Assembly (NCBI RefSeq): GCF_018476525.1 | Contig: NZ_JAHCST010000006.1 | Coordinates: 237,342-293,074 of the forward strand | DNA: 55,733 bases | Reading direction: 5' to 3' | Source of the DNA: Acrocarpospora catenulata | Lineage (GTDB): Bacteria; Actinomycetota; Actinomycetes; Streptosporangiales; Streptosporangiaceae | Shown: positions 28,827 to 51,020 of the stretch, piece after piece | Position numbering within the stretch: position 1 is the stretch's first letter | Layout of the letters: the number at the start of each line of letters is the position of its first letter | Notes under the pieces: model-generated | Told to the model about the DNA's origin: nothing | Seen by the model: only the letters and a program-made list of their open reading frames with translations | The model's database searches: none | Program-made: the position numbers and the translations under genes

Positions 28827-30465
<1,639 letters not shown>

Positions 30466-33916: not shown

Positions 33917-35103
33917 GCTGGAACGACTTCGACGGAGGCCGCGCGGTGGCCCCCGAGACCTTCGTCGCAGCGGCGAGCACGCTGCTGGACTCCGCGGTCG
34001 CCGCCGCGGGCGGCGGCGAGGCCACCAGGGCCCACTTCATCGCCGGGCTCCAGGCCAGCCTGAGCACCTCCGGCCCATACGCGACCCTGCGGCTGGACGC
34101 CGGGCTCGCCGACCAGGGCGTCCGGGGTGAGCTGCGGGAGAACGCCATCGCGGTGTCCGAGGTGGTGCTCGACCTGGTGCGGAGCACACCCGGCACGGGG
34201 GTGCCAGGCCCGCTGGACATCCACAGCAACTGCGTGGGTTACGCCTGGATTCCGCCGGTGGTCGATCTGCTCATCGCCGGTCCCGGCCTGCACGCCGCGC
34301 GCAACCTGTACAACGAGTGGCTGTGGCAGCTCGTGCTGCTGCGGGACGCCCTGATCCCGTTCACCGACCCGGCCCGGGTGCGGGTGCTCGCCGACGCCGA
34401 CGGCCTGACCAGGCTCCAGGACGCCCGCGACTGGTTCACCGTCCAGGTGATGACCAGGAGGATCGCCCACGCGGCGATCGTCCGGTTCGCCGCCGAGGCC
34501 GTGACGGGCGGGTACGCCGAGGGGGCCTACGGGTTCCAGCACGGGGGCGCGGTGGTCCTGCCGCCGGTCGCCCTCGACGGCGACCTGCTCGGCCCGGCGT
34601 ACCTGCTGGGCCGGCGCGATGGAACGCTGGTCGCCGAGGACACCGCGTACTTCGTCCAGGGGCGGGAGGACGGGGAGTCCGCGAGCACGCTGTCCGCCCC
34701 GGTGCGGGCGGTCGGCGACGTCGAGGTGGTCAGCCTGACCGACCGGCTGGTGCCCGGCCCGCCCGGTCCAGGCGCGACCCGCACCCTCAGCCTGGTGGTG
34801 GACTTCGACGGCCACGAGTGGACGGCCGACCTCGGGCGCGCCCTGCGCGGCCACCGCTACGCCGCCCGCCCGGCCGCCGCCGCGGCGGCGGGGGCCGCGG
34901 CCACGGTAATCGGCGCCTGGTCGGGCTGCGCGGTGCTGCGGCAGGACGGCGAGGTGGCGGTGCCGGAGGGCGGTGTCATCCCGACCGGTGGGCAGCGCGC
35001 GCTGACCCTCGCGCTGCTCGGCAGGATCCGGCCGGGCAACGTGGTGCTCTACACCGGCCAGGAGGTCGGCGGGCAGCAGATCCTCCTGGACATCCGGAGC
35101 TGA
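33913..35103 (+). CDS. Unrecognised 396-residue protein in the peptide ABC operon
   Basis: I do not recognise this family. No signal peptide and no convincing membrane helix, so it is probably cytoplasmic. The N-terminal half is predicted mostly helical (HFIAGLQASLSTSGPYATLR, DIHSNCVGYAWIPPVVDLL, YNEWLWQLVLLRD); the C-terminal half looks beta-rich with an alanine-rich stretch (RPAAAAAAGAAATVIGAW) and ends LLGRIRPGNVVLYTGQEVGG. Conserved-looking polar positions include HSNCVGYAW and FQHGGAVVLPP. It overlaps the lipoprotein stop (ATGA) and is one base from the permease gene, so it is co-translated with the transporter. It could be an enzyme acting on the imported compound. No function assigned. 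Confidence 0.85.
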   Translation: MSWNDFDGGRAVAPETFVAAASTLLDSAVAAAGGGEATRAHFIAGLQASLSTSGPYATLRLDAGLADQGVRGELRENAIAVSEVVLDLVRSTPGTGVPGPLDIHSNCVGYAWIPPVVDLLIAGPGLHAARNLYNEWLWQLVLLRDALIPFTDPARVRVLADADGLTRLQDARDWFTVQVMTRRIAHAAIVRFAAEAVTGGYAEGAYGFQHGGAVVLPPVALDGDLLGPAYLLGRRDGTLVAEDTAYFVQGREDGESASTLSAPVRAVGDVEVVSLTDRLVPGPPGPGATRTLSLVVDFDGHEWTADLGRALRGHRYAARPAAAAAAGAAATVIGAWSGCAVLRQDGEVAVPEGGVIPTGGQRALTLALLGRIRPGNVVLYTGQEVGGQQILLDIRS

Positions 35104-35104
35104 G

Positions 35105-36037
35105 GTGACCCGGTTCGTGGCGCGGCGTCTCGCGCAGGCGGCGGCCGTGGTGCTGGCGGCCTACACGCTCACCTTCGCCGCCTTCCACCTCCTTCCCGCC
35201 GATCCCGTACAGATCATGATCGGCCCGCAGAACGCGGTGGACCAGGCGCGGGTGGCCGCGCTGCGCGCCGAGTACGGCCTGGACCGCCCGGCGGCCGAGC
35301 GCTATCTCGACGGGCTGCTCGGCGCCCTGCGCGGCGACTTCGGCACGTCGTTCCAGACGGGTCGGGACGTCGGCGCGACGATCGCCGAGGCCGCGCCGCG
35401 CACGCTCGCGCTGGCGGGCGGCGCGCTGCTGGTGGCGATCCCGCTCGGCTTCCTGATCGCCTGGTCGGCCGCGCACACTCGGCGGGTGTGGCTGCGCCGC
35501 CTGCTCGGCGCGCTGCCCGGTCTGTCGCTGTCGGTTCCGACGTTCTGGCTCGGGCTGGTGCTGTTGCAGGCGTTCTCGTTCGGGCTGCCGCTGTTCCCCG
35601 CCAGGGGCGAGGACGGGCTCGCCGGTCTGGTGCTGCCGGCGGTGACGCTGGCGCTGCCGTCGTCGGCTTTCGTGGCGCAGGTTCTCCTGGAACGGCTGAC
35701 CGTGGAGATGCGGCAGCCGTACGTCGACACCGCGCGGGCCAAGGGCGCGTCGCGGGCGCGGGCGGTGACGGCGCACGCGCTGCGCAACGCCGCCATGCCC
35801 GCGCTGACCATGACCGCGCTGCTGGCCGGCTGGCTGCTGGCCGGGTCGGTCGTGGTGGAGACGGTCTTCGCGCGCAACGGGCTCGGCCGTCTGATCGAGT
35901 CGGCGGTCACCACCCGGGACCTGTCCATGCTGCAGGGCCTGGTCGTGGTGTCCACGGCGGTCGTCACACTGCTCACGCTCGCGGTGGACCTGGCCCATCC
36001 TCTGGTGGACCCGCGGCTGCGGGAGCGTGCCGCATGA
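35105..36037 (+). CDS. Peptide/nickel-type ABC transporter permease (DppB-like)
   Basis: 310 residues from GTG 35105. DppB hallmarks: MTRFVARRLAQAAAVVLAAY opening, FHLLPADPV, LRAEYGLDRP, FGTSFQTGRDV, PTFWLGLVLL, and the cytoplasmic coupling loop RQPYVDTARAKGASRARAVTAHALRNAAMP (EAA-type). About six helices. Overlaps the DppC-like gene by four bases. One half of the transmembrane channel for the substrate captured by the upstream lipoprotein. Confidence 0.94.
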   Translation: MTRFVARRLAQAAAVVLAAYTLTFAAFHLLPADPVQIMIGPQNAVDQARVAALRAEYGLDRPAAERYLDGLLGALRGDFGTSFQTGRDVGATIAEAAPRTLALAGGALLVAIPLGFLIAWSAAHTRRVWLRRLLGALPGLSLSVPTFWLGLVLLQAFSFGLPLFPARGEDGLAGLVLPAVTLALPSSAFVAQVLLERLTVEMRQPYVDTARAKGASRARAVTAHALRNAAMPALTMTALLAGWLLAGSVVVETVFARNGLGRLIESAVTTRDLSMLQGLVVVSTAVVTLLTLAVDLAHPLVDPRLRERAA

Positions 36038-36834
36038 GGCGGCGGCTCGGCGTCCTGCCGTCGGCCCTGGTGCTGCTGGCGGCCACGGCCGCCGCGCTGG
36101 CGCCCGGCCTGTTCTCCCCCGCCGATCCGCTGCGCGGCGATCTCACGGAACGGCTGCTGCCGCCGGAGGCCGCGCACCTGTTCGGGACGGACGAGCTGGG
36201 CAGGGACGTGCTGGCCAGAGTCGTGCACGGATCCGCCCCCTCGTTGCAGGCCGCGGTCATCGCGGTGGGCATCGCCGTCCTGGCCGGTTCGGCGATCGGG
36301 CTGGTGGCGGGGACCGCGCGGGGGCGGTTGGACGACCTGGTCATGCGCGCGGTGGAGGTGCTGCTCGCGGTGCCGTCGTTCCTGCTGATCCTTGTGGTCG
36401 TGGCGGTGCTCGGGCCGGGGACGCGCGAGGTGGCCTTCGCGGTCGGCGTGTCGGCGGCGGCGGTGTTCTCCCGGGTGGTGCGCGCCGAGGTCATCCGGGT
36501 CCGCGGGTCGGGGTACGTCGAGGCCGCCGCGGTGTGCGGGACCGGGCGGGCCACCGTGCTGCTGACCCATGTGCTGCCCAACGCCGCGGGGCCGGTGGCC
36601 GCGCTGGCGACGCTCGAACTGGGCAACGCCGTCCTCACCGTCGCCGCCGTGAGCTTCCTCGGCTTCGGGGCTCCGCCGCCGGCGCCCGAGTGGGGCTCAC
36701 TGATCGCCGCGGGACGGCCTTTCCTGGCCTCGGCGTGGTGGCTGACGACCGTGCCCGGTCTCGTCATCGTCGCCGTGGTGCTCGCGGTCAACCACCTCGG
36801 AAATGTGCTGCGTACGCGATCGGAGACAGGATGA
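36034..36834 (+). CDS. Peptide/nickel-type ABC transporter permease (DppC-like)
   Basis: 266 residues. DppC features: HLFGTDELGRDVLARVVHG after the first helix, the periplasmic entry, and the EAA-type loop SGYVEAAAVCGTGRATVLLTHVLPNAAGP, then LGFGAPPPAPEWGSLIAAGR near the C-terminus. About six helices. ATGA overlaps link it to DppB-like and the ATPase. Slightly shorter at the N-terminus than many DppC proteins. Confidence 0.94.
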   Translation: MRRRLGVLPSALVLLAATAAALAPGLFSPADPLRGDLTERLLPPEAAHLFGTDELGRDVLARVVHGSAPSLQAAVIAVGIAVLAGSAIGLVAGTARGRLDDLVMRAVEVLLAVPSFLLILVVVAVLGPGTREVAFAVGVSAAAVFSRVVRAEVIRVRGSGYVEAAAVCGTGRATVLLTHVLPNAAGPVAALATLELGNAVLTVAAVSFLGFGAPPPAPEWGSLIAAGRPFLASAWWLTTVPGLVIVAVVLAVNHLGNVLRTRSETG

Positions 36835-38363
36835 CCCCGCTGCTGGCCGTACGTGGCCTGACCGTGCGCTACGGGCGGGGCGGGCCGGCCGTGGACCGCG
36901 CCGACCTGACGGTGGAGGCCGGGCAGATCGTGGCGGTGGTCGGCGAGTCGGGGTCGGGCAAGTCCACGCTCGCGCATGCGCTGGCCGGTCTGCTGCCGGA
37001 CACGGCCAGGGTGACCGGGGGCTCGGTCACCTTCGGCGGCGAACGGGTGGACGGCCTGCGGGAGCGGGCGTGGCGGCGGCTGCGCGGACGGCGAATCGCA
37101 TTTGTGCCGCAGGACCCGGGAACGGCGCTCAACCCGCTGATGACCGTGCGCGCCCAGCTCGCCGAGGCGCTGCGGCTGACCGGCACCCCGAGGCCGGGCC
37201 AGGACGCCCTCGAAGACGCGCTCGGCCGCGTGGGCATCCCCGACCCGGCAGCAGTTCTCGGCCGGTACCCGCACCAGCTCTCCGGTGGTTTCCGGCAGCG
37301 CGTGCTGCTGGGCATGGCGCTTGCCGGGCGACCGGCGCTGCTGATCGCCGACGAGCCGACCTCCGCGCTCGACACCACGGTGCAGAAGACCGTGCTCGAC
37401 CTCATTCAGCGGGTCGCGGCCAGGGACGGCACGAGCATCCTCCTGATCACTCATGACCTCGGCGTCGCCGCGGACCGCGCGGACCGCGTGGCCGTCATGA
37501 CCGAGGGCCGTGTCGTGGAGGAAGGCCCGGCGGAGCGGGTGCTCGGCAGTCCGGAGGCCGCCTACACCCGGCTGCTGCTCGACTCGGTCCCCCGCCCGTC
37601 GGCCGGGCCCGCGCCGACCGCAGGGGAACCGCTGCTCGCGGTCCGTGACCTGCGCAAGGTGTATCCGGACGGCACGGTCGCGGTCGAGGGCGCCTCGTTC
37701 ACGCTGGACCGGGCGGGCACGCTCGGGCTGGTCGGCGCGTCGGGGTCGGGCAAGTCGACCGTCGCCCGCGTGATCACCGGGCTCGTCGAGCCGACGGGCG
37801 GGAGCGTGCTGCTGGACGGCGCGCCGGTCAGGGCAGGGCGGGTGCAGTTCGTCGCGCAGAACCCGTACGCGTCGCTCGACCCGCTGATGAGCGTGGGCCG
37901 CATCATCGCGGAACCGCTGCGGGCGCTGCGCGCGGGCACCAGGGCCGGGCGCCGGGAACGGGTGCGGCGCCTGCTTGAGGACGTCGGCCTGCCCCCCGAG
38001 GTCGCCTGGCGGCGGCCCTCGGCGCTCTCCGGCGGGCAGCGCCAGCGGGTCGCCATAGCCAGGGCGCTGGCGCCGTCGCCCGATCTGATCGTGCTCGACG
38101 AGCCGGTGTCCGCCCTGGACACGGTGACGCAGGCCCAGATCCTCACGCTGCTGCGCCGCCTCCAGGGCAAGCACGGGATGGCCTATCTGCTCATCTCGCA
38201 CGACCTCGCCGTGGTGGCCGCCGCCGCGGGGCGGCTCGCGGTGATGCGGGACGGCAGGATCGTCGAGTACGGCCCGACCGCCGAGGTGCTCGCCGCCCCG
38301 GAGGCGCCGTTCACCCGCGAACTGCTCGCCGCCATCCCGGGCGGGCGGGTGCGCTCAGCTTGA
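36831..38363 (+). CDS. Peptide ABC transporter ATPase, fused DppD-DppF type
   Basis: 510 residues comprising two complete ABC domains joined by a short linker near residue 260. First: GESGSGKSTLAHALAG, FVPQDPGTALNPLMTV, HQLSGGFRQRVLLGMAL, LLIADEPTSALD. Second: GASGSGKSTVARVITG, FVAQNPYASLDPLMSV, SALSGGQRQRVAIARAL, LIVLDEPVSALD. Both Walker motifs and signatures are intact, so both sites should hydrolyse ATP. The usual C-terminal iron-sulfur-type cysteines of DppD/OppD after the first domain are absent. Last gene of the operon, convergent with the hydrolases (stops overlap by nine bases). Confidence 0.95.
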   Translation: MTPLLAVRGLTVRYGRGGPAVDRADLTVEAGQIVAVVGESGSGKSTLAHALAGLLPDTARVTGGSVTFGGERVDGLRERAWRRLRGRRIAFVPQDPGTALNPLMTVRAQLAEALRLTGTPRPGQDALEDALGRVGIPDPAAVLGRYPHQLSGGFRQRVLLGMALAGRPALLIADEPTSALDTTVQKTVLDLIQRVAARDGTSILLITHDLGVAADRADRVAVMTEGRVVEEGPAERVLGSPEAAYTRLLLDSVPRPSAGPAPTAGEPLLAVRDLRKVYPDGTVAVEGASFTLDRAGTLGLVGASGSGKSTVARVITGLVEPTGGSVLLDGAPVRAGRVQFVAQNPYASLDPLMSVGRIIAEPLRALRAGTRAGRRERVRRLLEDVGLPPEVAWRRPSALSGGQRQRVAIARALAPSPDLIVLDEPVSALDTVTQAQILTLLRRLQGKHGMAYLLISHDLAVVAAAAGRLAVMRDGRIVEYGPTAEVLAAPEAPFTRELLAAIPGGRVRSA

Positions 38364-40190: not shown

Positions 40191-41378
40191 GTGATCGACA
40201 AAATGAGGGTCCTGAGTTTCTCGCACTTCGTCCAGGGGCCCGCGGCCTCGCAGTACCTGGCCGACCTCGGGGCCGACGTGATCAAGGTCGAGCCGCCCGC
40301 CGGGTCGTGGGAGCGCAGGATCGGCAGCGCGGGCATCCGGGTCGCCGGGCGCAGTGTGACGTTCCTGGCGGTCAACAGGAACAAGCGCTCGATCGCCGTC
40401 GACCTCAAACATCCGGACGCCCGCGCCGTGCTGCGCCCGCTGATCGAGCGGGCCGACGTGCTGCTGGAGAACTACCGGGGCGGCGCACTGGAGAAGCTCG
40501 GCCTCGGGTACGAGGCGGTACGCGCGATCAAACCCGACATCATCTACGCCTCGGCCAGCGGCTGGGGGTCGCGCGGCCCGATGGCCGGGCGACCGGGAGT
40601 GGACCTGCTCGTGCAGGCGCGCACCGGGCTGGTGGACGTCACCGGCGACCGCCCCACCGCGGCCGGCACGCCCGTCGTGGACCAGCACGGCGCTGCCCTG
40701 CTCGCGATGGGCGTGCTGGCCGCCTACGCGCGCAGGCTGACCACCGGCGAGGGCACCCGGGTCGAGTCGAGCCTGCTCGGCGCGGGGCTCGACCTGCAGG
40801 CGGAATCGCTCGCGCTGTACTACTCCGGCCGCAGGACCCAGACCGACATCCGCCGCCCCGCCGAGTCGGCGTGCTGGTCGATCGACGCCCCCTACGGGGT
40901 CTACCGGCTGCTGGACGCCTCGGTGGTGATCGCGCTGAACGGGTCGGAGGACGACCTCGGCGACGCGCTCGGCTCCCCCGCGCTGGCCGGCTACGACCAG
41001 CGGGCCAGGCGGACCAAGCGGGAGGAGTACACCGCGGCGGTGGCCCGGGCGCTGGCCGGAATGACCTACGCGGAGGTGGCCTCCCGGCTGGAGCCTCGCG
41101 GATTCTGGTTCGAGCGGGTGGCCACCTACGACGACGTACGCGACGACCCCCAGGTGGCCGCGGAAGAGCTGCTCGCCGAGTTCCCGGTGGGCGAGGAACG
41201 GGCGACCGTGCTGCGCCACCCGGTCCGCTACGACGGCGAGCTGCCCGGCCTGCGCACGGCGCCTCCCGAACTCGGCGCCGACACCGTGGCGGTGCTGCGC
41301 GCGGCGGGGTTCGCCGCGGACGAGGTGGACGGCTTCCTGTCCGCCGGCGTCGTGTTCGCGGCCGGAGGCGGGAAGTGA
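40191..41378 (+). CDS. CaiB/BaiF family (class III) CoA-transferase
   Basis: 395 residues from GTG 40191, behind GGGAGG at 40181-40186. Family features: LSFSHFVQGPAASQYLADLGADVIKVEPP, NRNKRSIAVDLKHPDAR, LLENYRGGALEKLG, YASASGWGSRGP, and the catalytic Asp138 in MAGRPGVDLLVQA. It moves CoA between carboxylic acids, here presumably to activate an acid derived from the imported compound. ATG/GTG overlaps tie it to the following quinone-oxidoreductase-like gene; with MFS and IclR genes it forms a four-gene plus-strand operon. Confidence 0.94.
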   Translation: MIDKMRVLSFSHFVQGPAASQYLADLGADVIKVEPPAGSWERRIGSAGIRVAGRSVTFLAVNRNKRSIAVDLKHPDARAVLRPLIERADVLLENYRGGALEKLGLGYEAVRAIKPDIIYASASGWGSRGPMAGRPGVDLLVQARTGLVDVTGDRPTAAGTPVVDQHGAALLAMGVLAAYARRLTTGEGTRVESSLLGAGLDLQAESLALYYSGRRTQTDIRRPAESACWSIDAPYGVYRLLDASVVIALNGSEDDLGDALGSPALAGYDQRARRTKREEYTAAVARALAGMTYAEVASRLEPRGFWFERVATYDDVRDDPQVAAEELLAEFPVGEERATVLRHPVRYDGELPGLRTAPPELGADTVAVLRAAGFAADEVDGFLSAGVVFAAGGGK

Positions 41379-42370
41379 GCGGACGCGCGCTGGTCTGCAC
41401 CCAGCTCGGCGGGCCCGAGGATCTTGAGCTGGCCGAGGTGGCGACGCCGAACCCGGGGCCGGGCGAGGTGCTGGTCGGGGTCAGCCACGTGGGGCTGAAC
41501 TTCCACGACACGCTGATCATCGCGGGCACGCACGTGGTGAAGCCGGAACCGCCGTTTTCCCCCGGCAGCGAGTACGCGGGAACGGTGCTGGCCGTCGGCG
41601 CGGAGGTCACGTCGGTGCGGCCCGGCGACCGCGTGGCGGGCAACGAGGAGTACGGCTGCGCCCGCGATGCCGTACTGGTCCGGGCGGACAGGGTCACCGT
41701 ACTGCCCGGCCACGTCACCGACCGGCAGGCCGCGGCGATCCTGGTGGCCTACTCGACCGCCTACCACGCGCTCGTCCAGCGGGCCGGGCTGCGCGCGGGC
41801 GAGACGCTCGCCGTGCTCGGCGCCGCCGGCGGGGTCGGCTCCGCCGCCGTGGACGTGGGGAACCTGCTCGGCGCCCGGGTGATCGCGGGCGCCGCCACAC
41901 CGGAGCGGGCGGAGTCGGCCCGCCGGTACGGCGCGCACGAGACCTTCTCCTACGGCGGCGCCGACGCCAAGACCGCGATCAAGGAGCTGACCGGTGGGGC
42001 CGGCGCGGACGTGGTTTTCGACCCGGTGGGCGGCGCGGTGGCTGAGGCCGCGGTGCGCGCCGTCGCGTGGGGCGGCCGATACCTGGTGATCGGGTTCGCC
42101 TCCGGCGGCATCCCGCGCGTCGGGCTGAACATCCCGCTGGTCAAGGGCTCCTCGGTGGTCGGGGTGTTCTGGGGCGAGTTCGTACGGCGGGACCGCGCGC
42201 TCCACGAGCGGAACCTGGGCCAGATCTTCGACTGGGCCGCGGCCGGACGACTACGGCACCAGATCCACGACGTGCTCCCACTCGACCAGGGGCCGCGCGC
42301 CCTGCGCGAACTGGCCGACGGCAGAGTCCGCGGCAAGCTGCTCCTGCGGGCAGGCGGCCCGGCGGAATGA
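41375..42370 (+). CDS. Zinc-independent medium-chain dehydrogenase, NADPH:quinone oxidoreductase type
   Basis: 331 residues from GTG 41375 (GTGA overlap). GroES-like N-terminal domain (PGPGEVLVGVSHVGLNFHDTL, PFSPGSEYAGTV) and Rossmann domain with LGAAGGVGSAAVDVG, ADVVFDPVGG and RYLVIGFASGGIP. No structural or catalytic zinc cysteines, as expected for the quinone-oxidoreductase/enoyl-reductase branch. It likely reduces a conjugated C=C in a CoA-ester or quinone-like intermediate. Confidence 0.93.
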   Translation: MSGRALVCTQLGGPEDLELAEVATPNPGPGEVLVGVSHVGLNFHDTLIIAGTHVVKPEPPFSPGSEYAGTVLAVGAEVTSVRPGDRVAGNEEYGCARDAVLVRADRVTVLPGHVTDRQAAAILVAYSTAYHALVQRAGLRAGETLAVLGAAGGVGSAAVDVGNLLGARVIAGAATPERAESARRYGAHETFSYGGADAKTAIKELTGGAGADVVFDPVGGAVAEAAVRAVAWGGRYLVIGFASGGIPRVGLNIPLVKGSSVVGVFWGEFVRRDRALHERNLGQIFDWAAAGRLRHQIHDVLPLDQGPRALRELADGRVRGKLLLRAGGPAE

Positions 42371-43758: not shown

Positions 43759-44618
43759 CAGAACCCACGATTCTCACCATGACCGCGCCCCGAGAAGACG
43801 CCCACAAGCCCGGCCGGACGGTGTCCAGCCGGGTCTTCGCGCTGCTCAACGCGTTCTCCCAGGAGCGGCCCGCGCTCCGCCTCGTCGAACTGACCGCCGT
43901 CACCGGGCTGCCGGTCTCGACGGTGCACCGCATCGCGGCCGAGCTGGTCGAGCTGGGAGCGTTGAAGAAGGAGCGCGACGGGACCTACCGGATCGGGTTG
44001 CGCATGTGGGAGCTGGGCTCGCTGTGCCCGCAACCGCGCACGCTACGGGACGTGTCGCTGCCGTTCATCCACGACCTGTACGAGACCACGGCGGAGAACG
44101 TCCACCTCGCGGTGCTCGACGGCGACGAGGTCCTCTACGTCGAGCGGGTGTGGGGACGCCGCTCGGTCGACGTGGTCAGCCGCGTCGGCGGGCGCTCGCC
44201 GCTGCACGCCACGGGAGTCGGCAAGGTACTGCTGGCCCACGCGCCGCGCGAACTGCAGCAGGCCGTGCTGGCGGCCGGGCTGAGGCGCTACACGCCGCGC
44301 ACGATCGTCATGCCGGGCCTGCTGATGCGGGCGCTCCAGGAGATCCGGGAGACCGGGATCGCCCGGTGCGCGGAAGAGCTGTCGCTGGGCACCGTGTCCG
44401 TGGCGGCCCCCATCCACGGGCCCGACCGCCGGGTCGTGGCCGCGCTCTCCGTCGTCTCGCACACCGTCACCCACACCCGGTCGCTGGCGGCGGTGGAGCC
44501 CGCGCTGCGGCTGGCGGCGATGTCAATCTCCCGGGAACTGGCCAAGGGCTACGCGGGCGGGCCGGAGGCCGGCGGCCCGCCCGGCACCGTCACGCCGATC
44601 CGGTCAGCAGCGCGGTAG
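43755..44618 (+). CDS. IclR family transcriptional regulator
   Basis: 287 residues, ATG overlapping the MFS stop. N-terminal winged helix: SSRVFALLNAFSQERPALRL then VELTAVTGLPVSTVHRIAAELVELGALKKER. C-terminal IclR effector domain: HLAVLDGDEVLYVERVWG, RSPLHATGVGKVLLAHAP (conserved ligand-site block), RCAEELSLGTVSVAAPIHGPDRRVVAALSV. IclR proteins usually sense aromatic acids or short organic acids. It is the best candidate to bind the four TTCY-N8-GGAA sites in this region. Its 3' end overlaps the convergent ACMSD-type gene by 29 bases. Confidence 0.95.
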   Translation: MTEPTILTMTAPREDAHKPGRTVSSRVFALLNAFSQERPALRLVELTAVTGLPVSTVHRIAAELVELGALKKERDGTYRIGLRMWELGSLCPQPRTLRDVSLPFIHDLYETTAENVHLAVLDGDEVLYVERVWGRRSVDVVSRVGGRSPLHATGVGKVLLAHAPRELQQAVLAAGLRRYTPRTIVMPGLLMRALQEIRETGIARCAEELSLGTVSVAAPIHGPDRRVVAALSVVSHTVTHTRSLAAVEPALRLAAMSISRELAKGYAGGPEAGGPPGTVTPIRSAAR

Positions 44619-45579
44619 CCGTCCCCGCCTGGACGGCCGCCGCGTCCCCCGGCGCGAGTTCGAGCGCCGCGACCGTGCCGAGCGGGTCGGTGTCGGCGAG
44701 TTCGAACGGGTAGTCCGTGCCGACGAGCACGTGGTCGGCGCCGAAGTCCTCGACGAGCCGCCGCAGCAGCGGGGTCGAGAAGGTGGCGGTGTCGTAGTAG
44801 AGGCGGCGCAGGTAGTCGCTCGGCGGGCGCGGCGTGGTGCGGGGGACCGGCTTGCGCGACCAGCCGAGGTCCAGCCTGCCGAGCAGGGACGGCAGGCACC
44901 CGCCGCCGTGCGCCAGGCACAGCCGCAGGTCGTGCCGTTCCAGGACGCCGCCGAGCACGAGCCGCGAGACGGCGAGCGCGGTCTCCATCGGGTAGCCGGC
45001 GAGCTGGGGCAGCCAGTAGTCGGCGAGCCGGGGGCCGCCGGGGACGCTGTTGGGGTGGAGGAAGACGAACGCGCGGCGGTCCGCGAGGAGCTCCCACAGC
45101 GGCTCGTGCAGGGGATCGTCCAGTTCCCTGCCCAGACCGCGGGTGCCGATGGCGATGCCCGCGCACCCCAGCTCGTCCAGGCAGCGGCGGGCCTCGTCCG
45201 GCGCGGCCGGCGTGCCGAGCGGCACGTACCCGAGCGGGTCGAGCACCCCGCGATGCCCGGCGAGGAGGTCGGCCAGCGCGTCGTTGCCGCGGCGGACCAC
45301 GGCCAGGACGTCCCGCTCGTCGGCGGCGTCCGCGCACGTCACGAACGGCGGCACCGACACGAGCTGGCGGGTGACGCCCATGCGGCGCAGGTCGGCCAGC
45401 CGTTCCGCGACGTCGTACTGGGCGGGCGGCAGCGGGATCGGCGCGCCCGTCGGTATCCCGGACACCAGCGGGTCGATCCTGACCACGCCGGCGGCGAGGC
45501 CGGACAGGTCGGCGAGGCCGCGGCCGGACAACCAGGTCAGCAGTGCCGTCGGCAGCGCGTGGGCGTGAACGTCGATCAT
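44590..45579 (-). CDS. ACMSD-type amidohydrolase-superfamily decarboxylase
   Basis: 329 residues. It resembles 2-amino-3-carboxymuconate 6-semialdehyde decarboxylase: metal ligands His5 and His7 (DVHAH), His175 (FLHPN), His224 (CLAHGGGCLP) and Asp289 (GTDYPFE), at nearly the spacing of the Pseudomonas enzyme. The block PRPPSDYLRRLYYDTATFSTP also fits. It would remove the carboxyl group from the ring-cleavage product of 3-hydroxyanthranilate. Last gene of the minus-strand operon, ATGA overlap with the ligase. Related decarboxylases acting on hydroxybenzoates are an alternative. Confidence 0.88.
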   Translation of the reverse strand: MIDVHAHALPTALLTWLSGRGLADLSGLAAGVVRIDPLVSGIPTGAPIPLPPAQYDVAERLADLRRMGVTRQLVSVPPFVTCADAADERDVLAVVRRGNDALADLLAGHRGVLDPLGYVPLGTPAAPDEARRCLDELGCAGIAIGTRGLGRELDDPLHEPLWELLADRRAFVFLHPNSVPGGPRLADYWLPQLAGYPMETALAVSRLVLGGVLERHDLRLCLAHGGGCLPSLLGRLDLGWSRKPVPRTTPRPPSDYLRRLYYDTATFSTPLLRRLVEDFGADHVLVGTDYPFELADTDPLGTVAALELAPGDAAAVQAGTATALLTGSA

Positions 45580-47018
45580 CCGACCGCCTCGGCGAGTCTG
45601 GCGCGGTCGAGCCGTCCCATGAAGTCGCGGAACAGCCGGTCGGTCCGGACGACCGCGTCGACCGCCACGGGGGTGTCGCGCAGCGCGTCACGTACGTCCT
45701 GCTCCAGCGTGACGCCCTCGCTCTCGACCAGGACGGCGACGCTCGCGGGGCCGGTCGGGACGACCGCCGCCGGATATCCGGTGCGGCGCGACACGGCTGC
45801 CTCCAGATCGCTCGGGCCCACGTAGGCGTCCGCGATCCGCAGCGCGTCCTGGACGCGGTTCACGTAGTGCAGGTGGCCGTCGGCGTCGCGCCGGCAGACG
45901 TCGCCGGTACGCAGCCAGCCGTCCTCGACCGGCGTGCCCGCGGGGAACGCGTAGGCGTGCGCGGTGGTCGGGCCCCGTACCCACAACTCCCCCGCCCGCC
46001 CGGCCGGGACGTCGCCGCCGCCGGGGCCGCGCAGGCGGACTTCGGTCCCGGGGAACGGCGCGCCGAGCGAGGTGCGCAGGCGCGGGTCAAGGTGGTCGGC
46101 CGGGGCGGTCCACGCGATCGTCTTGGGCACCTCGACCTGGCCGAACACCCCGCACAGCACCTCGCCGAACAGCGCGTGCGCACGGTCGATCTCCTCGCCG
46201 GTGAACGAGGCCCCGCTGTAGATCACCAGCGCCAGGGACGACCAGTCGTGACCGGCGGCGTCCGGGTGGGCCAGCAGGGCGCGCAGCGCGGGCGGCATCG
46301 CCATCAGCACGGTCGGGCGGTGCCGGGCGGCGGCCGCCAGCAGCGCGTCAGCGCCTGGACCCTCCGGGATGACGAACGTCCCGCCCAGCATCAGCGTCGG
46401 CAGCACCATGTTGCCGAAGCCACCGGACACCGACTCAGGGCACAGCACACGCGGCTGCTCCGGCCACGGGAGGGTGTCGCGCAGCGCGGTCGCCACCGCG
46501 CCCAGCGCGCCGGCGGACAGTTCGACGCCCTTGACCGGCCCGGTGGCGCCGGAGGTGAACGCCAGCCGTACCACGGCGCTCGCAGGCGCGGCCGGACCTG
46601 CGGGCCCAGGCTCCCTCGCGGCGGTCAGCTCGCGATCGGTCAGCACCCGGACCTCAGGATGGGCCCGCAGCCAGGCGTCCAGATCCGGGTCGCCCGGCTC
46701 GGTGAGCACGGCGTCCGGCGCGACAAGGTCCAGCCGCTCGGCCAGTGCCGCGCCGCGCAGGCCCCCCGGCGGCAGGGCGGCGGACCGGTGGCCCGCCACG
46801 TAGCAGGCCGCGTTGACCAGCCACTGCAGCGGGTCGTTGGGCCGGACCTGCAGCACCGTGTCACCCGGCCGCAGGCCGGCCTCGGCCAGGGCGTCCGCCA
46901 CGCCCAGCACCAGCCGCTCCGCCTCGCGGTAGGTCAGCTCGGCGCCGCCCTGCCGGAACGCGATGAGGCCAGGACGCGCGCGCAGCGCGTCCAGCACCAG
47001 CCCGCCGATCGCCATCAC
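45576..47018 (-). CDS. Divergent AMP-binding acyl-CoA ligase-like protein
   Basis: 480 residues from GTG 47018 (GTGA overlap with the dioxygenase stop; ATG 47015 is equally possible). Adenylate-forming fold: LAFTSGATGPVKGVEL (P-loop, residues 152-167), SLALVIYSGASFT, CGVFGQVEVPKT, DGWLRTGDVCRRDADGHL (hinge region) and NRVQDALRIADAYVGPSDLE. The catalytic lysine near the C-terminus (normally GK) is replaced: FMGRLDRARL has Arg469. It is shorter than typical benzoate-CoA ligases. It probably activates an aryl or dicarboxylic acid, but the missing lysine makes the adenylation step uncertain. Confidence 0.87.
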   Translation of the reverse strand: MMAIGGLVLDALRARPGLIAFRQGGAELTYREAERLVLGVADALAEAGLRPGDTVLQVRPNDPLQWLVNAACYVAGHRSAALPPGGLRGAALAERLDLVAPDAVLTEPGDPDLDAWLRAHPEVRVLTDRELTAAREPGPAGPAAPASAVVRLAFTSGATGPVKGVELSAGALGAVATALRDTLPWPEQPRVLCPESVSGGFGNMVLPTLMLGGTFVIPEGPGADALLAAAARHRPTVLMAMPPALRALLAHPDAAGHDWSSLALVIYSGASFTGEEIDRAHALFGEVLCGVFGQVEVPKTIAWTAPADHLDPRLRTSLGAPFPGTEVRLRGPGGGDVPAGRAGELWVRGPTTAHAYAFPAGTPVEDGWLRTGDVCRRDADGHLHYVNRVQDALRIADAYVGPSDLEAAVSRRTGYPAAVVPTGPASVAVLVESEGVTLEQDVRDALRDTPVAVDAVVRTDRLFRDFMGRLDRARLAEAVG

Positions 47019-47536
47019 AGCCGCTCGTCCGGCATGACCGTGCCGCAGGACTTGCAGGTCCGCGCGGCGACGTCGCCGTAGAACCGCTGGTACGCGCCCG
47101 CCACCGGGTCGGTGCGGTAGTCGCTCACGTGGACGGCCTCCTCGTGCAGAAACTCATCGCAGGCGGGACAGAACCAGCGGAAGCGGTCCAGTTCACCCGG
47201 CCGCCGCAGCCGTTCGATGACCAGCACGAACGCGTCCGGCGCGAACCGGGGCGAGTGGGCGATGCCGGTCGGCGTGAAAATGGTCCCGCCCTCAGGGATC
47301 ACCGCGATGTCCGAGCCGCCCTCGGGCTTGCGGTAGTGCAGGTCCATGGAGCCCAGCACCATGAACATCACCTCGTCGCTCGGGTTGAGGTGGAACTCGC
47401 TGCGATATTCGCGGCCACGGGCGAGGAAGGCGAGCGACTCGCTCTCCTGCCACAGCACCTTGACCCGCCTGCCGCTCACCTGCAGTTCTCCGGCCGCCTT
47501 GCGCAGCTCGACGATGGGCATCTGGCTGGGGTGCAT
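47015..47536 (-). CDS. nbaC: 3-hydroxyanthranilate 3,4-dioxygenase
   Basis: 173 residues, the size of bacterial HAAO. Iron ligands His49 and Glu55 in YRSEFHLNPSDEVMFMVLG and His94 in TPTGIAHSPRF; substrate-binding arginines Arg45 and Arg97 are present. The C-terminal rubredoxin-like site Cys123/Cys126 (FCPACDE) and Cys161/Cys164 (CKSCGTV) is intact, typical of the bacterial enzyme. It opens the aromatic ring of 3-hydroxyanthranilate between C3 and C4. AGGAGGT precedes the ATG. Embedded between the YtcJ-type amidohydrolase and the ligase gene. Confidence 0.92.
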   Translation of the reverse strand: MHPSQMPIVELRKAAGELQVSGRRVKVLWQESESLAFLARGREYRSEFHLNPSDEVMFMVLGSMDLHYRKPEGGSDIAVIPEGGTIFTPTGIAHSPRFAPDAFVLVIERLRRPGELDRFRWFCPACDEFLHEEAVHVSDYRTDPVAGAYQRFYGDVAARTCKSCGTVMPDERL

Positions 47537-47557
47537 TGCTACCTCCTGGTGTGCTGC

Positions 47558-49126
47558 TCAGCCGAGCAGGCCGGTGTCGTACACGATCTGGCCGTCGACG
47601 ACGGTCATCAGGACCTCGATCGCGCGGAGTTCGTCGTCGGACGCGGTGAGCGGGTCGGCGCCGAGCACGGCCAGGTCGGCGAGCGCGCCCGCGGTGAGCC
47701 GGCCCTTGACCTCCTGCTCGCCGGTGTGCGCGGCGCCGGAGGTGGTGTACAGGCGCAGGGCCTCCGCCCGGGTGATCGCCTGCGTGTCCCCCACGACGTC
47801 GCCCGCCGCGTCGCGCCTGGTCGTCATGGCGTAGATGTTCTGGAACGGGTCGAGGGCGTTGATCGGATAGTCGGTGCCGGCCGCGACGCCGTCGAGCCCG
47901 AGGCCGTCCACGAGGTCGCGCAGCGGCACGGCGGCCTCGGTGCGGGCATCGCCGAGGTGGCCGGCGATGGCCACCCGGTTGTGCCACAGGAACGGGATCT
48001 GCGCGGCCACCTGCACGCCCAGCGCGCGGGCCCGGGCGATCTGGTCGGGCCGGATCAGGCTGGCGTGGATGAGCACGTCCGGCAGGAGGCCCCGGCACCG
48101 GCCGGCCTCGTAGACGTCGAGGGCGAGGTCGATCGCGGCGTCGCCCACCACGTGCGTGCCGACCGGCCAGCCCGCGCGGTGCGCCGCGCCGACCAGCTCG
48201 CCCAGCCGATCCCGGTCGGCGAACACCTCACCGTGGTAGCAGGGATCGGTGCGGTACGGCTCACGCGTGGCCGCCGTGCCGAGCGTCATGCCGCCGTCCA
48301 CCTGGAGCTTCACACCCCGGGTGAGGTAGTGCCCGCCGACGGGCCCGGGCGGTCCCGAGGCCAGCAGCGCCTCCCAGTCCGCGAGCGGGACCGACGGGTT
48401 GAGCTCGCTGGACGGCATGACCATCGCGGCCACCCGGAGCGTGGACCGCCCGTCCCCGGCCAGCTCACGCACCGCCTCGACGTCCGGTGGCCGCAACGCG
48501 CCCGCCACGACCGAGGTGATCCCGTGCCGGTTGAGCGCTCGCATGGCGGCGGTGAGCTGGGCGGCCCGCTCCGCACGGGTCCATTCCGGCACCACCCGGG
48601 CGACGGCGTGCCTGGCGCCCTCGACCAGCCTGCCGTCGTGCCCGCTGGGGTCGACGCCCGCCCGTTCCAGCGCGGCGGTGCTGACCGTCGCGGCGTGGCC
48701 CTCCGGCAGGTACACCGGGCGTCCGCCCGCCGCCCGGTCCAGCTCGTGCCGGTTGGGCCCACGGCCCTCGGCGAGCTGGAGAAGCGGGTTCCACGGCTGC
48801 CCCTGCACCCACGCGCCGGGCTCGCGGGTGGCGGCCAGCGCGGCGACCCGGTCCAGTGCGGCGTCGAGCGTGCGCACACCCGCGAACGACACGGTGTGCT
48901 CGTCCATCCCCGCGTTCTCGAAGTGGCAGTGCGAGTCGACCAGCCCGGGGATCACCGTCCGGCCCGCCAGCCGTACCACCCTGGTGGACGGGCCGGCCAG
49001 GGGTGCGACGTCGGCGTCACGGCCGACCGCGGACACCCGGCCCCCGGTCACCGCGACCGCCTCGGCGACCGTGCCGCGCGCGTCCAGCGTGTGCACCCGG
49101 CCGCCGAGCAGGACCAGGTCGGTCAT
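47558..49126 (-). CDS. YtcJ-type amidohydrolase (Amidohydrolase_3)
   Basis: 522 residues from ATG 49126 (ATGA overlap with RidA). Metal-dependent hydrolase fold: LLGGRVHTLD start, RTVIPGLVDSHCHFENAG with HxH, GVKLQVDGGMTLGTAA, GWPVGTHVVGDAAIDLALDVYE (His), LLPDVLIHASLIRPDQI (His), and AAGTDYPINALDPFQNIYAM with the catalytic Asp. Related to proteins that hydrolyse N-formyl or amide bonds of aryl compounds. In this operon a natural role is release of an amino-aromatic acid from an amide. Substrate inferred only. Confidence 0.92.
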   Translation of the reverse strand: MTDLVLLGGRVHTLDARGTVAEAVAVTGGRVSAVGRDADVAPLAGPSTRVVRLAGRTVIPGLVDSHCHFENAGMDEHTVSFAGVRTLDAALDRVAALAATREPGAWVQGQPWNPLLQLAEGRGPNRHELDRAAGGRPVYLPEGHAATVSTAALERAGVDPSGHDGRLVEGARHAVARVVPEWTRAERAAQLTAAMRALNRHGITSVVAGALRPPDVEAVRELAGDGRSTLRVAAMVMPSSELNPSVPLADWEALLASGPPGPVGGHYLTRGVKLQVDGGMTLGTAATREPYRTDPCYHGEVFADRDRLGELVGAAHRAGWPVGTHVVGDAAIDLALDVYEAGRCRGLLPDVLIHASLIRPDQIARARALGVQVAAQIPFLWHNRVAIAGHLGDARTEAAVPLRDLVDGLGLDGVAAGTDYPINALDPFQNIYAMTTRRDAAGDVVGDTQAITRAEALRLYTTSGAAHTGEQEVKGRLTAGALADLAVLGADPLTASDDELRAIEVLMTVVDGQIVYDTGLLG

Positions 49127-49539
49127 GGCCGGATCACGGCGGCCACGCACTCGACCTCGACCTGCACCCCGGTGCGGTGCGGGGTCGCGATGACCGTGGT
49201 CCGCGCGGGGAAGTGCGGGTTGCCCTCGAAGAACTCGCGGTAGACGGCGTTGAACACCGGGAAGTTGGCCACGTCGCGCACGAAACAGGTGCACTTGAGG
49301 ATGCTCTCCCGGCTGCCGCCCGCCGCCTCGACGACCGCGACCAGGTTGGTGAGCGTCTGCCTGACCTGCTCGGCGAAGTCGTCGGAGACGATGGTGCGCG
49401 TCTGCGGGTCCAGCGGCCCGGTGCCCGAGCAGTAGATGGTGTCGCCGTGCACGATCGCCTGGGACAGCGGCGCGGCCGTCCCCGTGGAGAAGCCCACGGT
49501 GGGTGCGTTGCGGGTGCTGACGGCTCGAATTTCGGACAT
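49123..49539 (-). CDS. RidA/YjgF family protein, candidate 2-aminomuconate deaminase
   Basis: 138 residues. RidA fold: QAIVHGDTIYCSGTGPLDPQT, VRQTLTNLVAVVEAAGGSRESILKCTCFVRD, and FPARTTVIATPHR with the carboxylate-binding arginine, followed by VEVECVAAV with the conserved Glu. RidA-family deaminases convert 2-aminomuconate (an enamine) to 4-oxalocrotonate in 2-nitrobenzoate and aminophenol degradation, matching the neighbouring dioxygenase, decarboxylase and dehydrogenase. General enamine/imine deaminase activity is the alternative. AAGGAGC ribosome site. Confidence 0.87.
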   Translation of the reverse strand: MSEIRAVSTRNAPTVGFSTGTAAPLSQAIVHGDTIYCSGTGPLDPQTRTIVSDDFAEQVRQTLTNLVAVVEAAGGSRESILKCTCFVRDVANFPVFNAVYREFFEGNPHFPARTTVIATPHRTGVQVEVECVAAVIRP

Positions 49540-49589
49540 GGTTGCTCCTTGCGAGTCGGACGTGCGGTCGCGGTGGGGCGGCGACCCCG

Positions 49590-51020
49590 TTACGAGATCT
49601 CCATGATGACGGCCTTGGGTTCGGTGAAGAACTCCCGGCTGTAGGTTCCGCCCTCACGGCCGACGCCGGAGTTTTTGGCACCGCCGAAAGGCGCGCGGAG
49701 ATCCCTGACGAAGAAGCAGTTCGCCCAGACGGTGCCGACCCGCAGTGCCCGCGCGACGCGGTGGGCGCGGGAGAGGTCCTGGGTGAACAGCATGGCGTTC
49801 AGGCCGTACGGCGTGTCGTTGGCCGCCGTCACCGCGTCCGCCTCCTCCTCGAACGGGAGCACCACCACGACGGGCCCGAAGATCTCCTCCTGGGTGACCC
49901 GGTCGCGCTGGCCCGCGCCGACCACCACGGTCGGCCGCACGGTCCACCCCTCGCCCACGCCGCCCGTGTGCAGCCGCGCGCCGGCCTCCGTCGCGATGTC
50001 CAGGTAACCGGCCACCTTCGTGAAGTGTTCCCGCGAGGACAGCGGGCCGATCTGCGTCGCCGGATCCTTCGGGTCGCCGAGCACGAGCGCGTCGGCCGCG
50101 GCGGTGAACCTGGCCAGGAACTCGTCGTACACCTCGCGCTGCACGTACAGCCGGCTTCCGGCCAGGCAGACCTGCCCGCTGTTGCTGAACACCGCCTGGA
50201 TGGACCAGCTGACCGCCTGGTCCAGGTCCGCGTCGGCGAAGACGATGTTCGCGCCCTTGCCGCCCAGTTCCAGGCTGACCGGGGTCAGGTTGGCCGCCGC
50301 GGCCCTGGAGATCAGCCGGCCGGTGGCCGACTCGCCGGTGAAGGTGATCCGGTCGACCAGCGGGGAGTCGGTCAGCGCCTGGCCCGCCGAGTTCGCCCCG
50401 AACCCGTGGACGACGTTGAGCACGCCGGGTGGCAGGCCGGCCTCCAGCGCCAGCCGGGCCAGGATGGTGGCCGAGGCGGGCGACTGCTCGGCGGGCTTGA
50501 GCACGACCGTGTTCCCCCAGGCGAGCGCGGGCGCGACCTTCCAGCTCGCCATCATGAGCGGGAAGTTCCACGGCGCGATGGCGGCCACGACGCCCGCCGG
50601 GTCGTACTGGGTGTAGGCGTGGTGCCCGGTCGGCATCGGGAACGTCTCGGCGGGGGTGATCTGCGCGTGGTCGGCGAAGAACCGGAAGTTCCGCGCCGCG
50701 CGGGGGACGTCGTGCCCCGTGGTCTGGGTGATCGGCTTGCCCATGTCCGTGGTGTCGGCCGCCGCCAGCTCCTCGACGTGCTTGTCCAGCAGGTCGGCGA
50801 GGCGGTGCAGGATCGCGCCGCGTTCGGCGAAGCTCATCCGCGGCCACGGACCTTCGTCGAAGGCCGACCGCGCGGCGTGTACGGCGCGTTCCGCGTCGCC
50901 GGCCGAGCCGAGCGCCACCGTGGCCCACGGTTCCCGCGTCCACGGGTCCACGGACTCGAACGCCGTCCCATCGGCCGAGGCTACCTCCTCGCCCCCGATG
51001 ACGTGCCCGAACGATTCCAC
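49590..51020 (-). CDS. Aldehyde dehydrogenase, candidate 2-aminomuconic semialdehyde dehydrogenase
   Basis: 476 residues from GTG 51020, behind AGGAGG. Complete ALDH fold: Asn152 in APWNFP, Lys175 in VVLKPAEQSP, FTGESATGR, Glu251 in LELGGKG, catalytic Cys285 in NSGQVCLAGSR, and EEIFGPVVVV. The region FTQDLSRAHRVARAL then GTVWANCFFVRDLRAPFGGAKNSGVGREGG matches the hydroxymuconic/aminomuconic semialdehyde dehydrogenase group, which has NCFFVRDLRTPFGG. It would oxidise 2-aminomuconate 6-semialdehyde made by the ACMSD-type enzyme. First gene of the minus-strand operon, preceded by operator site C. Confidence 0.92.
   Translation of the reverse strand: MESFGHVIGGEEVASADGTAFESVDPWTREPWATVALGSAGDAERAVHAARSAFDEGPWPRMSFAERGAILHRLADLLDKHVEELAAADTTDMGKPITQTTGHDVPRAARNFRFFADHAQITPAETFPMPTGHHAYTQYDPAGVVAAIAPWNFPLMMASWKVAPALAWGNTVVLKPAEQSPASATILARLALEAGLPPGVLNVVHGFGANSAGQALTDSPLVDRITFTGESATGRLISRAAAANLTPVSLELGGKGANIVFADADLDQAVSWSIQAVFSNSGQVCLAGSRLYVQREVYDEFLARFTAAADALVLGDPKDPATQIGPLSSREHFTKVAGYLDIATEAGARLHTGGVGEGWTVRPTVVVGAGQRDRVTQEEIFGPVVVVLPFEEEADAVTAANDTPYGLNAMLFTQDLSRAHRVARALRVGTVWANCFFVRDLRAPFGGAKNSGVGREGGTYSREFFTEPKAVIMEIS

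What the first reader, a model, noticed from the sequence alone, without database searches (positions are those of the whole stretch)
44590..51020. 3-hydroxyanthranilate-type meta-cleavage operon with unusual partners
The minus-strand operon combines HAAO, ACMSD-type decarboxylase, aminomuconic-semialdehyde-type dehydrogenase and a RidA-type deaminase (the nbaCDEF set of 2-nitrobenzoate/3-hydroxyanthranilate degradation) with a YtcJ-type amidohydrolase and an acyl-CoA ligase. No kynureninase, kynurenine monooxygenase, or 4-oxalocrotonate decarboxylase, hydratase or aldolase is in the window. The route may start from an amide or ester of a hydroxyanthranilate and finish through CoA chemistry (CoA-transferase, crotonase, SDR), which I do not know as a described pathway.
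Basis: partly seen in the sequence, partly recalled or inferred. Interest (0 to 1): 0.75.

Follow-up and report, generated by a model that had tools for sequence, protein, structure and literature searches.

The report
Second type of aminohydroxybenzoate-cleavage gene cluster
Some soil actinobacteria carry a second version of the gene set that breaks open aromatic rings bearing neighbouring amino and hydroxyl groups; its enzymes look re-tuned away from the tryptophan breakdown product it was first taken for, most likely towards a relative of 4-aminobenzoate.

Summary
The operon is real and at the stated coordinates: aldehyde dehydrogenase, RidA, YtcJ-type amidohydrolase, HAAO-like cupin, AMP-ligase-like protein, ACMSD-like decarboxylase. 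It is part of a 20-kb cluster shared by several actinobacterial genera. It is probably not a 3-hydroxyanthranilate operon. All 33 HAAO-like rows of this type (26 distinct) carry Arg-Phe where all 25 canonical rows carry Gln-Arg, and the branch between them has full support. The partner decarboxylases lack Arg51 and have Gln for Trp194, residues that contact ACMS carboxylates. Canonical loci examined carry kynureninase (6 of 10) and no clear tautomerase (0 of 10); this type carries no kynureninase (0 of 22), a tautomerase (14 of 22) and an Amidohydro_3 hydrolase (18 of 22). Seven Actinomadura loci have a PobA-like hydroxylase directly beside the dioxygenase. Best reading: modified meta-cleavage of an amide-released aminohydroxybenzoate, most likely 4-amino-3-hydroxybenzoate, as described for Bordetella 10d. 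The 'missing' lower genes are in this genome: decarboxylase and tautomerase on another contig, 92-94% identical to copies flanking the cluster in a congener. The ligase lacks the catalytic lysine, so a CoA ending is unsupported. The substrate is inferred from sequence only.

The parts
47015..47536 (-). HAAO-like cupin ring-cleavage dioxygenase, 'RF' type (R97-F98 after H94-S95-P96)
   Evidence: Pfam 3-HAO, below NCBIfam HAAO cut-offs; metal ligands H49/E55/H94, R45, E108 and four Cys kept; RF in 33/33 versus QR in 25/25 rows
44590..45579 (-). ACMSD-like Amidohydro_2 decarboxylase without Arg51 and with Gln at Trp194
49123..49539 (-). RidA/YjgF-type deaminase
   Evidence: Pfam PF01042; present in 22 of 22 loci L002-L023
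49590..51020 (-). 2-amino/2-hydroxymuconate 6-semialdehyde dehydrogenase-type ALDH
   Evidence: best solved match 2-aminomuconate 6-semialdehyde dehydrogenase, 6.7e-129; HpaE and OH_muco_semi_DH best NCBIfam, both below cut-off
47558..49126 (-). YtcJ-type Amidohydro_3 hydrolase (probable amide hydrolase)
   Evidence: PF07969 8e-76; recurrent partner
45576..47015 (-). AMP-binding ligase-like protein; catalytic C-terminal lysine position is not Lys; C-terminal domain lost in several relatives
   Evidence: PF00501
51113..51868 (-). enoyl-CoA hydratase family protein, possibly first gene of the operon
   Evidence: PF00378; present in L003, L004, L005, L007 and G562, not in L002 or L006
52025..52789 (+). 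SDR
   Evidence: PF13561; same family in L002-L008
43779..44618 (+). IclR-family regulator
   Evidence: PF01614/PF09339; same family in L002-L008 and L010
42403..43758 (+). MFS transporter
   Evidence: PF07690 (scanned as a longer frame)
41375..42370 (+). zinc-type alcohol dehydrogenase/MDR
   Evidence: PF00107
40191..41378 (+). family III CoA-transferase
   Evidence: PF02515
39181..40068 (-). alpha/beta hydrolase 1
   Evidence: PF00561
38355..39191 (-). alpha/beta hydrolase 2
   Evidence: PF12697
32342..33916 (+). SBP_bac_5 solute-binding protein of an oligopeptide-type ABC importer
   Evidence: PF00496; conserved in G522 and G562
33913..35103 (+). conserved 396-aa protein inside the ABC operon, no Pfam match
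35105..36037 (+). ABC permease
   Evidence: PF00528
36034..36834 (+). probable second ABC permease (by position; not scanned on its own)
   Evidence: gene; conserved in G522 and G562
36831..38363 (+). double ABC ATPase
   Evidence: PF00005 twice

Best explanation
The cluster is a modified meta-cleavage pathway for an o-aminophenol that carries a carboxyl group, most likely 4-amino-3-hydroxybenzoate, taken up and released from an amide. Proposed steps: (1) the ABC importer and the YtcJ hydrolase take up and free the aminohydroxybenzoate (inferred); (2) the RF-type HAAO cleaves the ring beside the hydroxyl to 2-amino-5-carboxymuconate 6-semialdehyde (inferred from family and residues); (3) RidA deaminates the enamine early and the ACMSD-like enzyme removes the carboxyl, in either order, giving 2-hydroxymuconate semialdehyde (inferred; the tautomerase argues for deamination before dehydrogenation); (4) the ALDH makes 2-hydroxymuconate; (5) the tautomerase and 4-oxalocrotonate decarboxylase, which in this genome sit on contig C126, then a hydratase, aldolase and acylating acetaldehyde dehydrogenase elsewhere, finish to pyruvate and acetyl-CoA. 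Shown by sequence: genes, conservation, residue changes, partner genes. Inferred: every substrate and the order of steps. The roles of CoA-transferase, ADH, SDR, enoyl-CoA hydratase and ligase-like protein remain unassigned; they may process the other half of the amide.
For: HAAO: 33/33 rows (26 distinct) have RF, 25/25 canonical have QR at 1yfu positions 98-99, with the metal ligands, Arg47, Glu110 and four Cys shared by all 58; the splitting branch has 100/100 support. ACMSD: Arg51 absent in 22/22 rows covering it (six of them repeats of species already counted) and Gln at 194 in the 20 that reach it, against Arg51 and Trp194 in 18/18 canonical; those residues contact the two head carboxylates of ACMS (PMC11650718, passages). 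Context: kynureninase 0/22 versus 6/10 canonical; tautomerase 14/22 versus 0/10; Amidohydro_3 18/22 versus 0/10; PobA-like 7/22 (all Actinomadura) versus 0/10 (kynureninase confirmed by profile in the five that were scanned). RidA in 22/22 indicates an amine. PobA enzymes can turn 4-aminobenzoate into 4-amino-3-hydroxybenzoate (PMC10466732 and PMC12125101, passages). Bordetella 10d degrades 4-amino-3-hydroxybenzoate by cleavage, deamination, decarboxylation, dehydrogenation, tautomerase, decarboxylase (PMC4539516, passages), and its dioxygenase is a monocupin (PMC10306065, passages). Lower pathway inside the cluster in G562 and G602, and all but a separate hydratase in L012.
Against: No assay of an RF-type enzyme was found. 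The Arg47 and Glu110 equivalents are kept, and the role of Arg99 is recalled, not tested. The ALDH is closest among solved structures to 2-aminomuconate semialdehyde dehydrogenase, which would suit dehydrogenation before deamination; and the ARO microcompartment loci, which use the 2-aminophenol route, also hold a tautomerase (PMC10470539, passages), so the tautomerase argument is not strict. Two canonical loci gave weak partial tautomerase matches at E 0.003-0.009. Actinomadura decarboxylases have an Arg close to the shortened Arg51 segment. In Bordetella the decarboxylation is described as non-enzymatic, whereas here a decarboxylase gene is conserved. The window-type cluster has no hydroxylase, and this genome's PobA homologue lies in a protocatechuate operon. 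By eye the PobA-like protein keeps the usual active-site residues, so nothing in it points to an amine. Defluviicoccus genomes show no RF-type decarboxylase. Tautomerase, decarboxylase and amidohydrolase are common families.
Confidence: 0.55

Rival explanations
1. An ordinary 3-hydroxyanthranilate (nbaCDEF-like) operon with extra genes, as first read.
For: Same enzyme families, shared catalytic residues, ALDH closest to 2-aminomuconate semialdehyde dehydrogenase; a kynureninase-family gene exists elsewhere in the genome, over the family's cut-off (the same search also rang in 10 of 14 control genomes, over the cut-off in 2).
Against: Separate branch with changed residues in two consecutive enzymes; kynureninase in 6/10 canonical but 0/22 RF loci; canonical loci form a different set in related genomes, and three genomes (G423, G543, G679) have an RF gene and a second, weak HAAO match (motif of the second not checked).
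Confidence: 0.12
2. A protocatechuate 2,3-cleavage pathway (Paenibacillus JJ-1b type, recalled): HAAO-like cupin cleaves protocatechuate, ACMSD-like enzyme removes the carboxyl, ALDH and tautomerase follow; RidA is accessory.
For: PobA-like gene beside the dioxygenase in 7 Actinomadura loci; tautomerase and decarboxylase present.
Against: RidA in 22/22 loci; Glu110 equivalent conserved; amidohydrolases are recurrent; the genome already has a protocatechuate ortho-cleavage operon with PobA.
Confidence: 0.12
3. The same logic acts on another o-aminophenol: 3-amino-4-hydroxybenzoate, an O-demethylated methoxy-aminobenzoate, or a larger amide natural product or drug.
For: Different front ends in different genera: P450 with Fer2 reductase-like gene in L010, amidase in G602, amidohydrolases, ABC importers of several types; no hydroxylase in the window cluster.
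Against: PobA chemistry points to position 3 of a para-substituted benzoate; a carboxyl beside the nascent aldehyde fits an added decarboxylase better than the 3-amino-4-hydroxy isomer (chemical inference).
Confidence: 0.18
4. Biosynthesis or hydrolysis of a benzoxazole: ligase plus amidohydrolase as in caboxamycin/nataxazole clusters (the ligase there is recalled).
For: Papers on those clusters mention an amidohydrolase and 3-hydroxyanthranilate (search listing and abstract starts only).
Against: Ligase lacks the catalytic lysine in 7/7 aligned; the conserved neighbours are catabolic; the amidohydrolase here is PF07969 and no sequence comparison with those enzymes was made.
Confidence: 0.03

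Closest known systems
4-amino-3-hydroxybenzoate modified meta-cleavage pathway of Bordetella sp. 10d (AhdA monocupin, RidA-type deaminase)
   Same: Expected step set: cupin dioxygenase, YjgF/RidA-type deaminase, semialdehyde dehydrogenase, tautomerase, 4-oxalocrotonate decarboxylase (PMC4539516, PMC6449761, PMC10306065, passages)
   Different: Here an ACMSD-like decarboxylase is conserved where the review calls the step non-enzymatic; amidohydrolase and ABC importer added; Actinomycetota; sequence relation to AhdA untested
2-nitrobenzoate/3-hydroxyanthranilate (nba/kynurenine) operon
   Same: HAAO, ACMSD, ALDH, RidA, decarboxylase homologues
   Different: RF in place of QR, Arg51/Trp194 lost, no kynureninase in the loci, tautomerase in most
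Protocatechuate 2,3-cleavage pathway (recalled)
   Same: decarboxylation of a carboxylated semialdehyde, then ALDH, tautomerase, decarboxylase
   Different: RidA and a HAAO-type cupin here
2-aminophenol meta-cleavage in the ARO microcompartment of Actinobacteria (PMC10470539, passages)
   Same: aminophenol chemistry in Actinobacteria; later-stage genes often elsewhere in the genome; tautomerase and 2-aminomuconate deaminase genes
   Different: the words 3-hydroxyanthranilate and ACMSD do not occur in that paper's main text; shell-protein genes were not searched for here, and none showed among the genes scanned

Membership tests
HAAO (3-hydroxyanthranilate 3,4-dioxygenase) | cupin with 2-His-1-Glu metal site, Arg47, Glu110 and C-terminal four-Cys site | tested here: met
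   33/33 RF rows
HAAO (3-hydroxyanthranilate 3,4-dioxygenase) | Gln98-Arg99 after the metal His (Arg99 role in carboxylate binding recalled) | tested here: not met
   0/33 RF rows, 25/25 canonical rows
HAAO (3-hydroxyanthranilate 3,4-dioxygenase) | score above curated NCBIfam equivalog cut-off | tested here: not met
   112.2 of 220; 103.7 of 145.95
ACMSD | metal ligands HxH, His177, Asp294 and catalytic His228, Arg239 | tested here: met
ACMSD | Arg51 and Trp194 contacting substrate carboxylates | tested here: not met
   (Arg51 placed by the column next to residue 52, where the typed P. fluorescens fragment begins); roles from PMC11650718
nba/kynurenine-type 3-hydroxyanthranilate operon | upper gene that makes 3-hydroxyanthranilate (kynureninase) beside it | tested here: not met
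   0/22 RF loci and none in the window; 6/10 canonical loci
4-amino-3-hydroxybenzoate pathway (Bordetella 10d) | cupin dioxygenase, RidA deaminase, dehydrogenase, tautomerase, 4-oxalocrotonate decarboxylase encoded in the genome | tested here: met
4-amino-3-hydroxybenzoate pathway (Bordetella 10d) | dioxygenase homologous to AhdA and active on 4-amino-3-hydroxybenzoate | not testable with these tools
   AhdA sequence not held; no assay
Acyl-CoA synthetase | C-terminal domain with catalytic lysine (motif position recalled) | tested here: not met
   lysine position is not Lys or is absent in 7/7 aligned; C-terminal domain missing in 4/7; the ligases of G423 and of the other family genomes were not examined

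The most novel reading that the evidence does not exclude
A second, uncharacterised branch of the HAAO/ACMSD enzyme pair, mainly actinobacterial, has been re-tuned together to open amide-released 4-amino-3-hydroxybenzoates, with a dedicated decarboxylase for the 5-carboxy semialdehyde. Different genera have bolted on different front ends (amidohydrolase, amidase, PobA-like hydroxylase, P450), and a ligase-like protein without its catalytic lysine does something other than make acyl-CoA.
Probability: 0.4. Interest if true: 0.65.

Novelty: new variant of a known kind. Interest (0 to 1): 0.5.

Why it matters
Genes of this branch are likely to be annotated as 3-hydroxyanthranilate dioxygenase and ACMSD, which would assign tryptophan catabolism where there is probably none. 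If the reading holds, it gives a gene set for 4-amino-3-hydroxybenzoate (and so 4-aminobenzoate or its amides) degradation in Actinomycetota, a simple two-residue marker (HSPRF versus HSPQR), and a pair of enzyme families for testing how substrate position is switched in cupin dioxygenases and their partner decarboxylases.

Tried and rejected
3-hydroxyanthranilate as substrate: not favoured, for the residue and context reasons given. Pathway ending through CoA chemistry: rejected because tautomerase and 4-oxalocrotonate decarboxylase belong to the cluster in relatives and exist in the genome. PobA as the missing upper enzyme in this genome: the only homologue at E 1e-20 (C1:250126) lies in a pca-type operon with two CoA-transferase, two protocatechuate dioxygenase-type, lyase and carboxymuconolactone decarboxylase/hydrolase genes, so it is not linked. 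Pseudogene reading of the ligase: dN/dS 0.32-0.43 in four pairwise comparisons points to purifying selection, so it was not called dead. The single-protein phylum search (6 of 396 genomes with any match, only the own genome of this type) was too sparse; the family search with a profile was used instead. A plasmid search gave 77 records, all under 60% identity, best listed 38% (40 of 77 rows seen; their motifs were not read). A regular-expression attempt on ACMSD N-termini printed nothing and was replaced by an alignment. No structure prediction was run. The HAAO structure paper sought for Arg99 was not held, and one search listed one paper only, on ACMSD.

Literature: searches listed, judged by titles and abstract starts, no paper that describes this gene cluster (one search showed 15 of 16, one search showed 12 of 84); 12 papers hold the term 4-amino-3-hydroxybenzoate. 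Only passages were read of PMC4539516, PMC6449761, PMC12125101, PMC10306065, PMC11650718, PMC10470539, PMC7118221, PMC10466732 and PMC9420511; other papers only in listings.


Full report
WHAT IS THERE. The ALDH is closest among solved structures to 2-aminomuconate 6-semialdehyde dehydrogenase, and two others to HAAO and ACMSD. However, the HAAO-like protein misses both curated NCBIfam cut-offs by a wide margin and the ACMSD-like protein matches no NCBIfam model.

THE UNIT IS A LARGE CONSERVED CLUSTER. A scan of GTDB species genomes with the HAAO-like protein gave 22 loci. In Acrocarpospora, Microbispora, Herbidospora, two Amycolatopsis and one Streptomyces (L002-L007) the same genes occur in nearly the same order: SDR, ALDH, RidA, YtcJ, HAAO, ligase, ACMSD, IclR, MFS, CoA-transferase and alpha/beta hydrolase, plus an ABC ATPase in L002, L003, L004 and L006. 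Pseudonocardia thermophila L008 and an unnamed relative (G423) keep most of the set in a rearranged order. G562 has everything on one contig: aldolase, acetaldehyde dehydrogenase, hydratase, ABC importer, CoA-transferase to IclR, ACMSD to enoyl-CoA hydratase, SDR, tautomerase, transporter and decarboxylase. The window genome belongs with Acrocarpospora: G522, called same genus, matches A. pleiomorpha L002 in contig length, position and HAAO sequence.

THE MISSING GENES. In L002-L006 a transporter and a tautomerase, and in all but L005 a 4-oxalocrotonate decarboxylase-like gene, lie next to the SDR. In the window genome these three sit together on another contig (C126:31218-34035); decarboxylase and tautomerase are 92% and 94% identical to the A. 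pleiomorpha copies. An aldolase homologue (73% identical) lies on C171 beside genes whose size and position fit acetaldehyde dehydrogenase and hydratase (a hydratase/decarboxylase-family match there). So the lower meta-cleavage pathway appears complete or nearly so. A kynureninase-family gene is also present, on C116 (298.7 bits, over the cut-off; the search also rang in 10 of 14 control genomes, over the cut-off in 2), outside this cluster.

TWO KINDS OF HAAO. A profile search of 297 genomes of the family found 105 with a match, with a gap in score between 11 genomes at 283-338 bits and the rest at 123 bits or less. In an alignment of 58 rows, 33 rows of the high-scoring kind (26 distinct; seven are repeats, mostly or wholly the same species drawn from two collections) have Arg-Phe, and 25 rows, including solved 1yfu, have Gln-Arg at positions 98-99; the metal ligands, Arg47, Glu110 and four cysteines are identical in all 58. 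The tree splits them with 100/100 support; the program warns of long branches on the canonical side. That Arg99 binds the substrate carboxylate in HAAO is recalled; the paper was not held.

THE DECARBOXYLASE CHANGED TOO. ACMSD-like proteins from RF loci lack Arg51 (shortened segment) in 22 of 22 rows (16 without the repeated species) and have Gln at position 194 in the 20 rows that reach it; 18 of 18 canonical rows have Arg51 and Trp194. The typed P. fluorescens fragment begins at residue 52, so Arg51 was placed by the adjoining column. In ACMSD these residues and Arg239 contact the two head carboxylates (PMC11650718, passages); Arg239 is kept. Actinomadura proteins have an Arg close to the shortened segment, so the loss is clearest in the window-type proteins. 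Two Pseudonocardia genomes whose RF locus lacks the decarboxylase encode one of this type elsewhere (L084, L085); the five Defluviicoccus genomes have no match above 35% identity.

CONTEXT SEPARATES THE KINDS. With the same queries, kynureninase lies in 6 of 10 canonical loci near full length (two more give partial matches of 256 and 84 residues) and in 0 of 22 RF loci; tautomerase in 0 of 10 and 14 of 22; an Amidohydro_3 hydrolase in 0 of 10 and 18 of 22; a PobA-like gene in 0 of 10 and 7 of 22. At a looser threshold two canonical loci give weak partial tautomerase matches. The ten canonical stretches (15 kb each) were chosen by me: seven of the 19 canonical loci and three of the five. RF loci ranged from 3.8 to 20.5 kb and some are cut by contig ends, so RF absences are less certain than presences. 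The Amidohydro_3 genes fall into three families in three lineages, and G602 has a PF01425 amidase near its RF gene. The own genome has six strong Amidohydro_3 matches (over 100 bits, the window's included) in 10.3 Mb, so recurrence by chance is unlikely, though no formal test was made.

MECHANISM. A RidA gene in all 22 RF loci indicates an amine. A tautomerase is expected if the chain passes through 2-hydroxymuconate, as when deamination precedes dehydrogenation; this is how 4-amino-3-hydroxybenzoate is degraded in Bordetella 10d (PMC4539516, passages), by a monocupin dioxygenase (PMC10306065, passages) and a YjgF-like deaminase (PMC6449761, passages). Against a strict reading, ARO microcompartment loci of the 2-aminophenol route also hold a tautomerase (PMC10470539, passages), and the ALDH resembles 2-aminomuconate semialdehyde dehydrogenase most. 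PobA-type enzymes, the type beside the RF gene in seven Actinomadura loci, can 3-hydroxylate 4-aminobenzoate to 4-amino-3-hydroxybenzoate (PMC10466732, passages). Together these make 4-amino-3-hydroxybenzoate the leading candidate. The window cluster has no hydroxylase, so its substrate may arrive already hydroxylated, as an amide.

THE LIGASE. All seven ligase-like proteins aligned lack the lysine of the C-terminal catalytic motif (motif position recalled), and four lack the C-terminal domain altogether (an eighth, in L005, is short and also shows no Lys there). It is still under purifying selection (dN/dS 0.32-0.43). It should not be counted as an acyl-CoA synthetase without an assay.

SPREAD. 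Silent-site distances between window and Microbispora genes (dS 0.11-0.22) are like those to the congener (0.11-0.24), and two congeneric genomes, G474 and G501, lack any match, which suggests transfer between genera; no formal test was made.

VERDICT. It is a new variant of a known kind, with the substrate inferred from sequence only.

Noticed in passing
L010:1222-5272: Pseudonocardia sulfidoxydans: ferredoxin-reductase-like gene, P450 and metallohydrolase directly before RidA and RF HAAO, suggesting a P450 front end (O-demethylation or hydroxylation) to the same ring cleavage.
   Followed up: partly
L021:9995-17968 and L015, L022, L023: Defluviicoccus: RF HAAO and RidA with an isochorismatase-fold hydrolase, molybdenum hydroxylase and Amidohydro_3 (an HbpS-like protein too in L021-L023), but no RF-type decarboxylase found in the genomes; perhaps a different ending.
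   Followed up: partly
window 45576-47015: AMP-ligase-like protein without catalytic lysine, C-terminal domain lost in several relatives, yet under purifying selection.
   Followed up: partly
L040:7952-14117 (genome contig C67): Another aromatic-type cluster in the same genome with tautomerase, 4-oxalocrotonate decarboxylase-like gene and Fer2 reductase.
   Followed up: no
window 28827-30287: FAD aromatic-ring hydroxylase with Rng_hyd_C domain about 2 kb beyond the ABC importer; no homologue was called in the matching stretch of A. pleiomorpha.
   Followed up: partly
window 4919-9637: Very large minus-strand gene (1572 aa) that was not examined.
   Followed up: no
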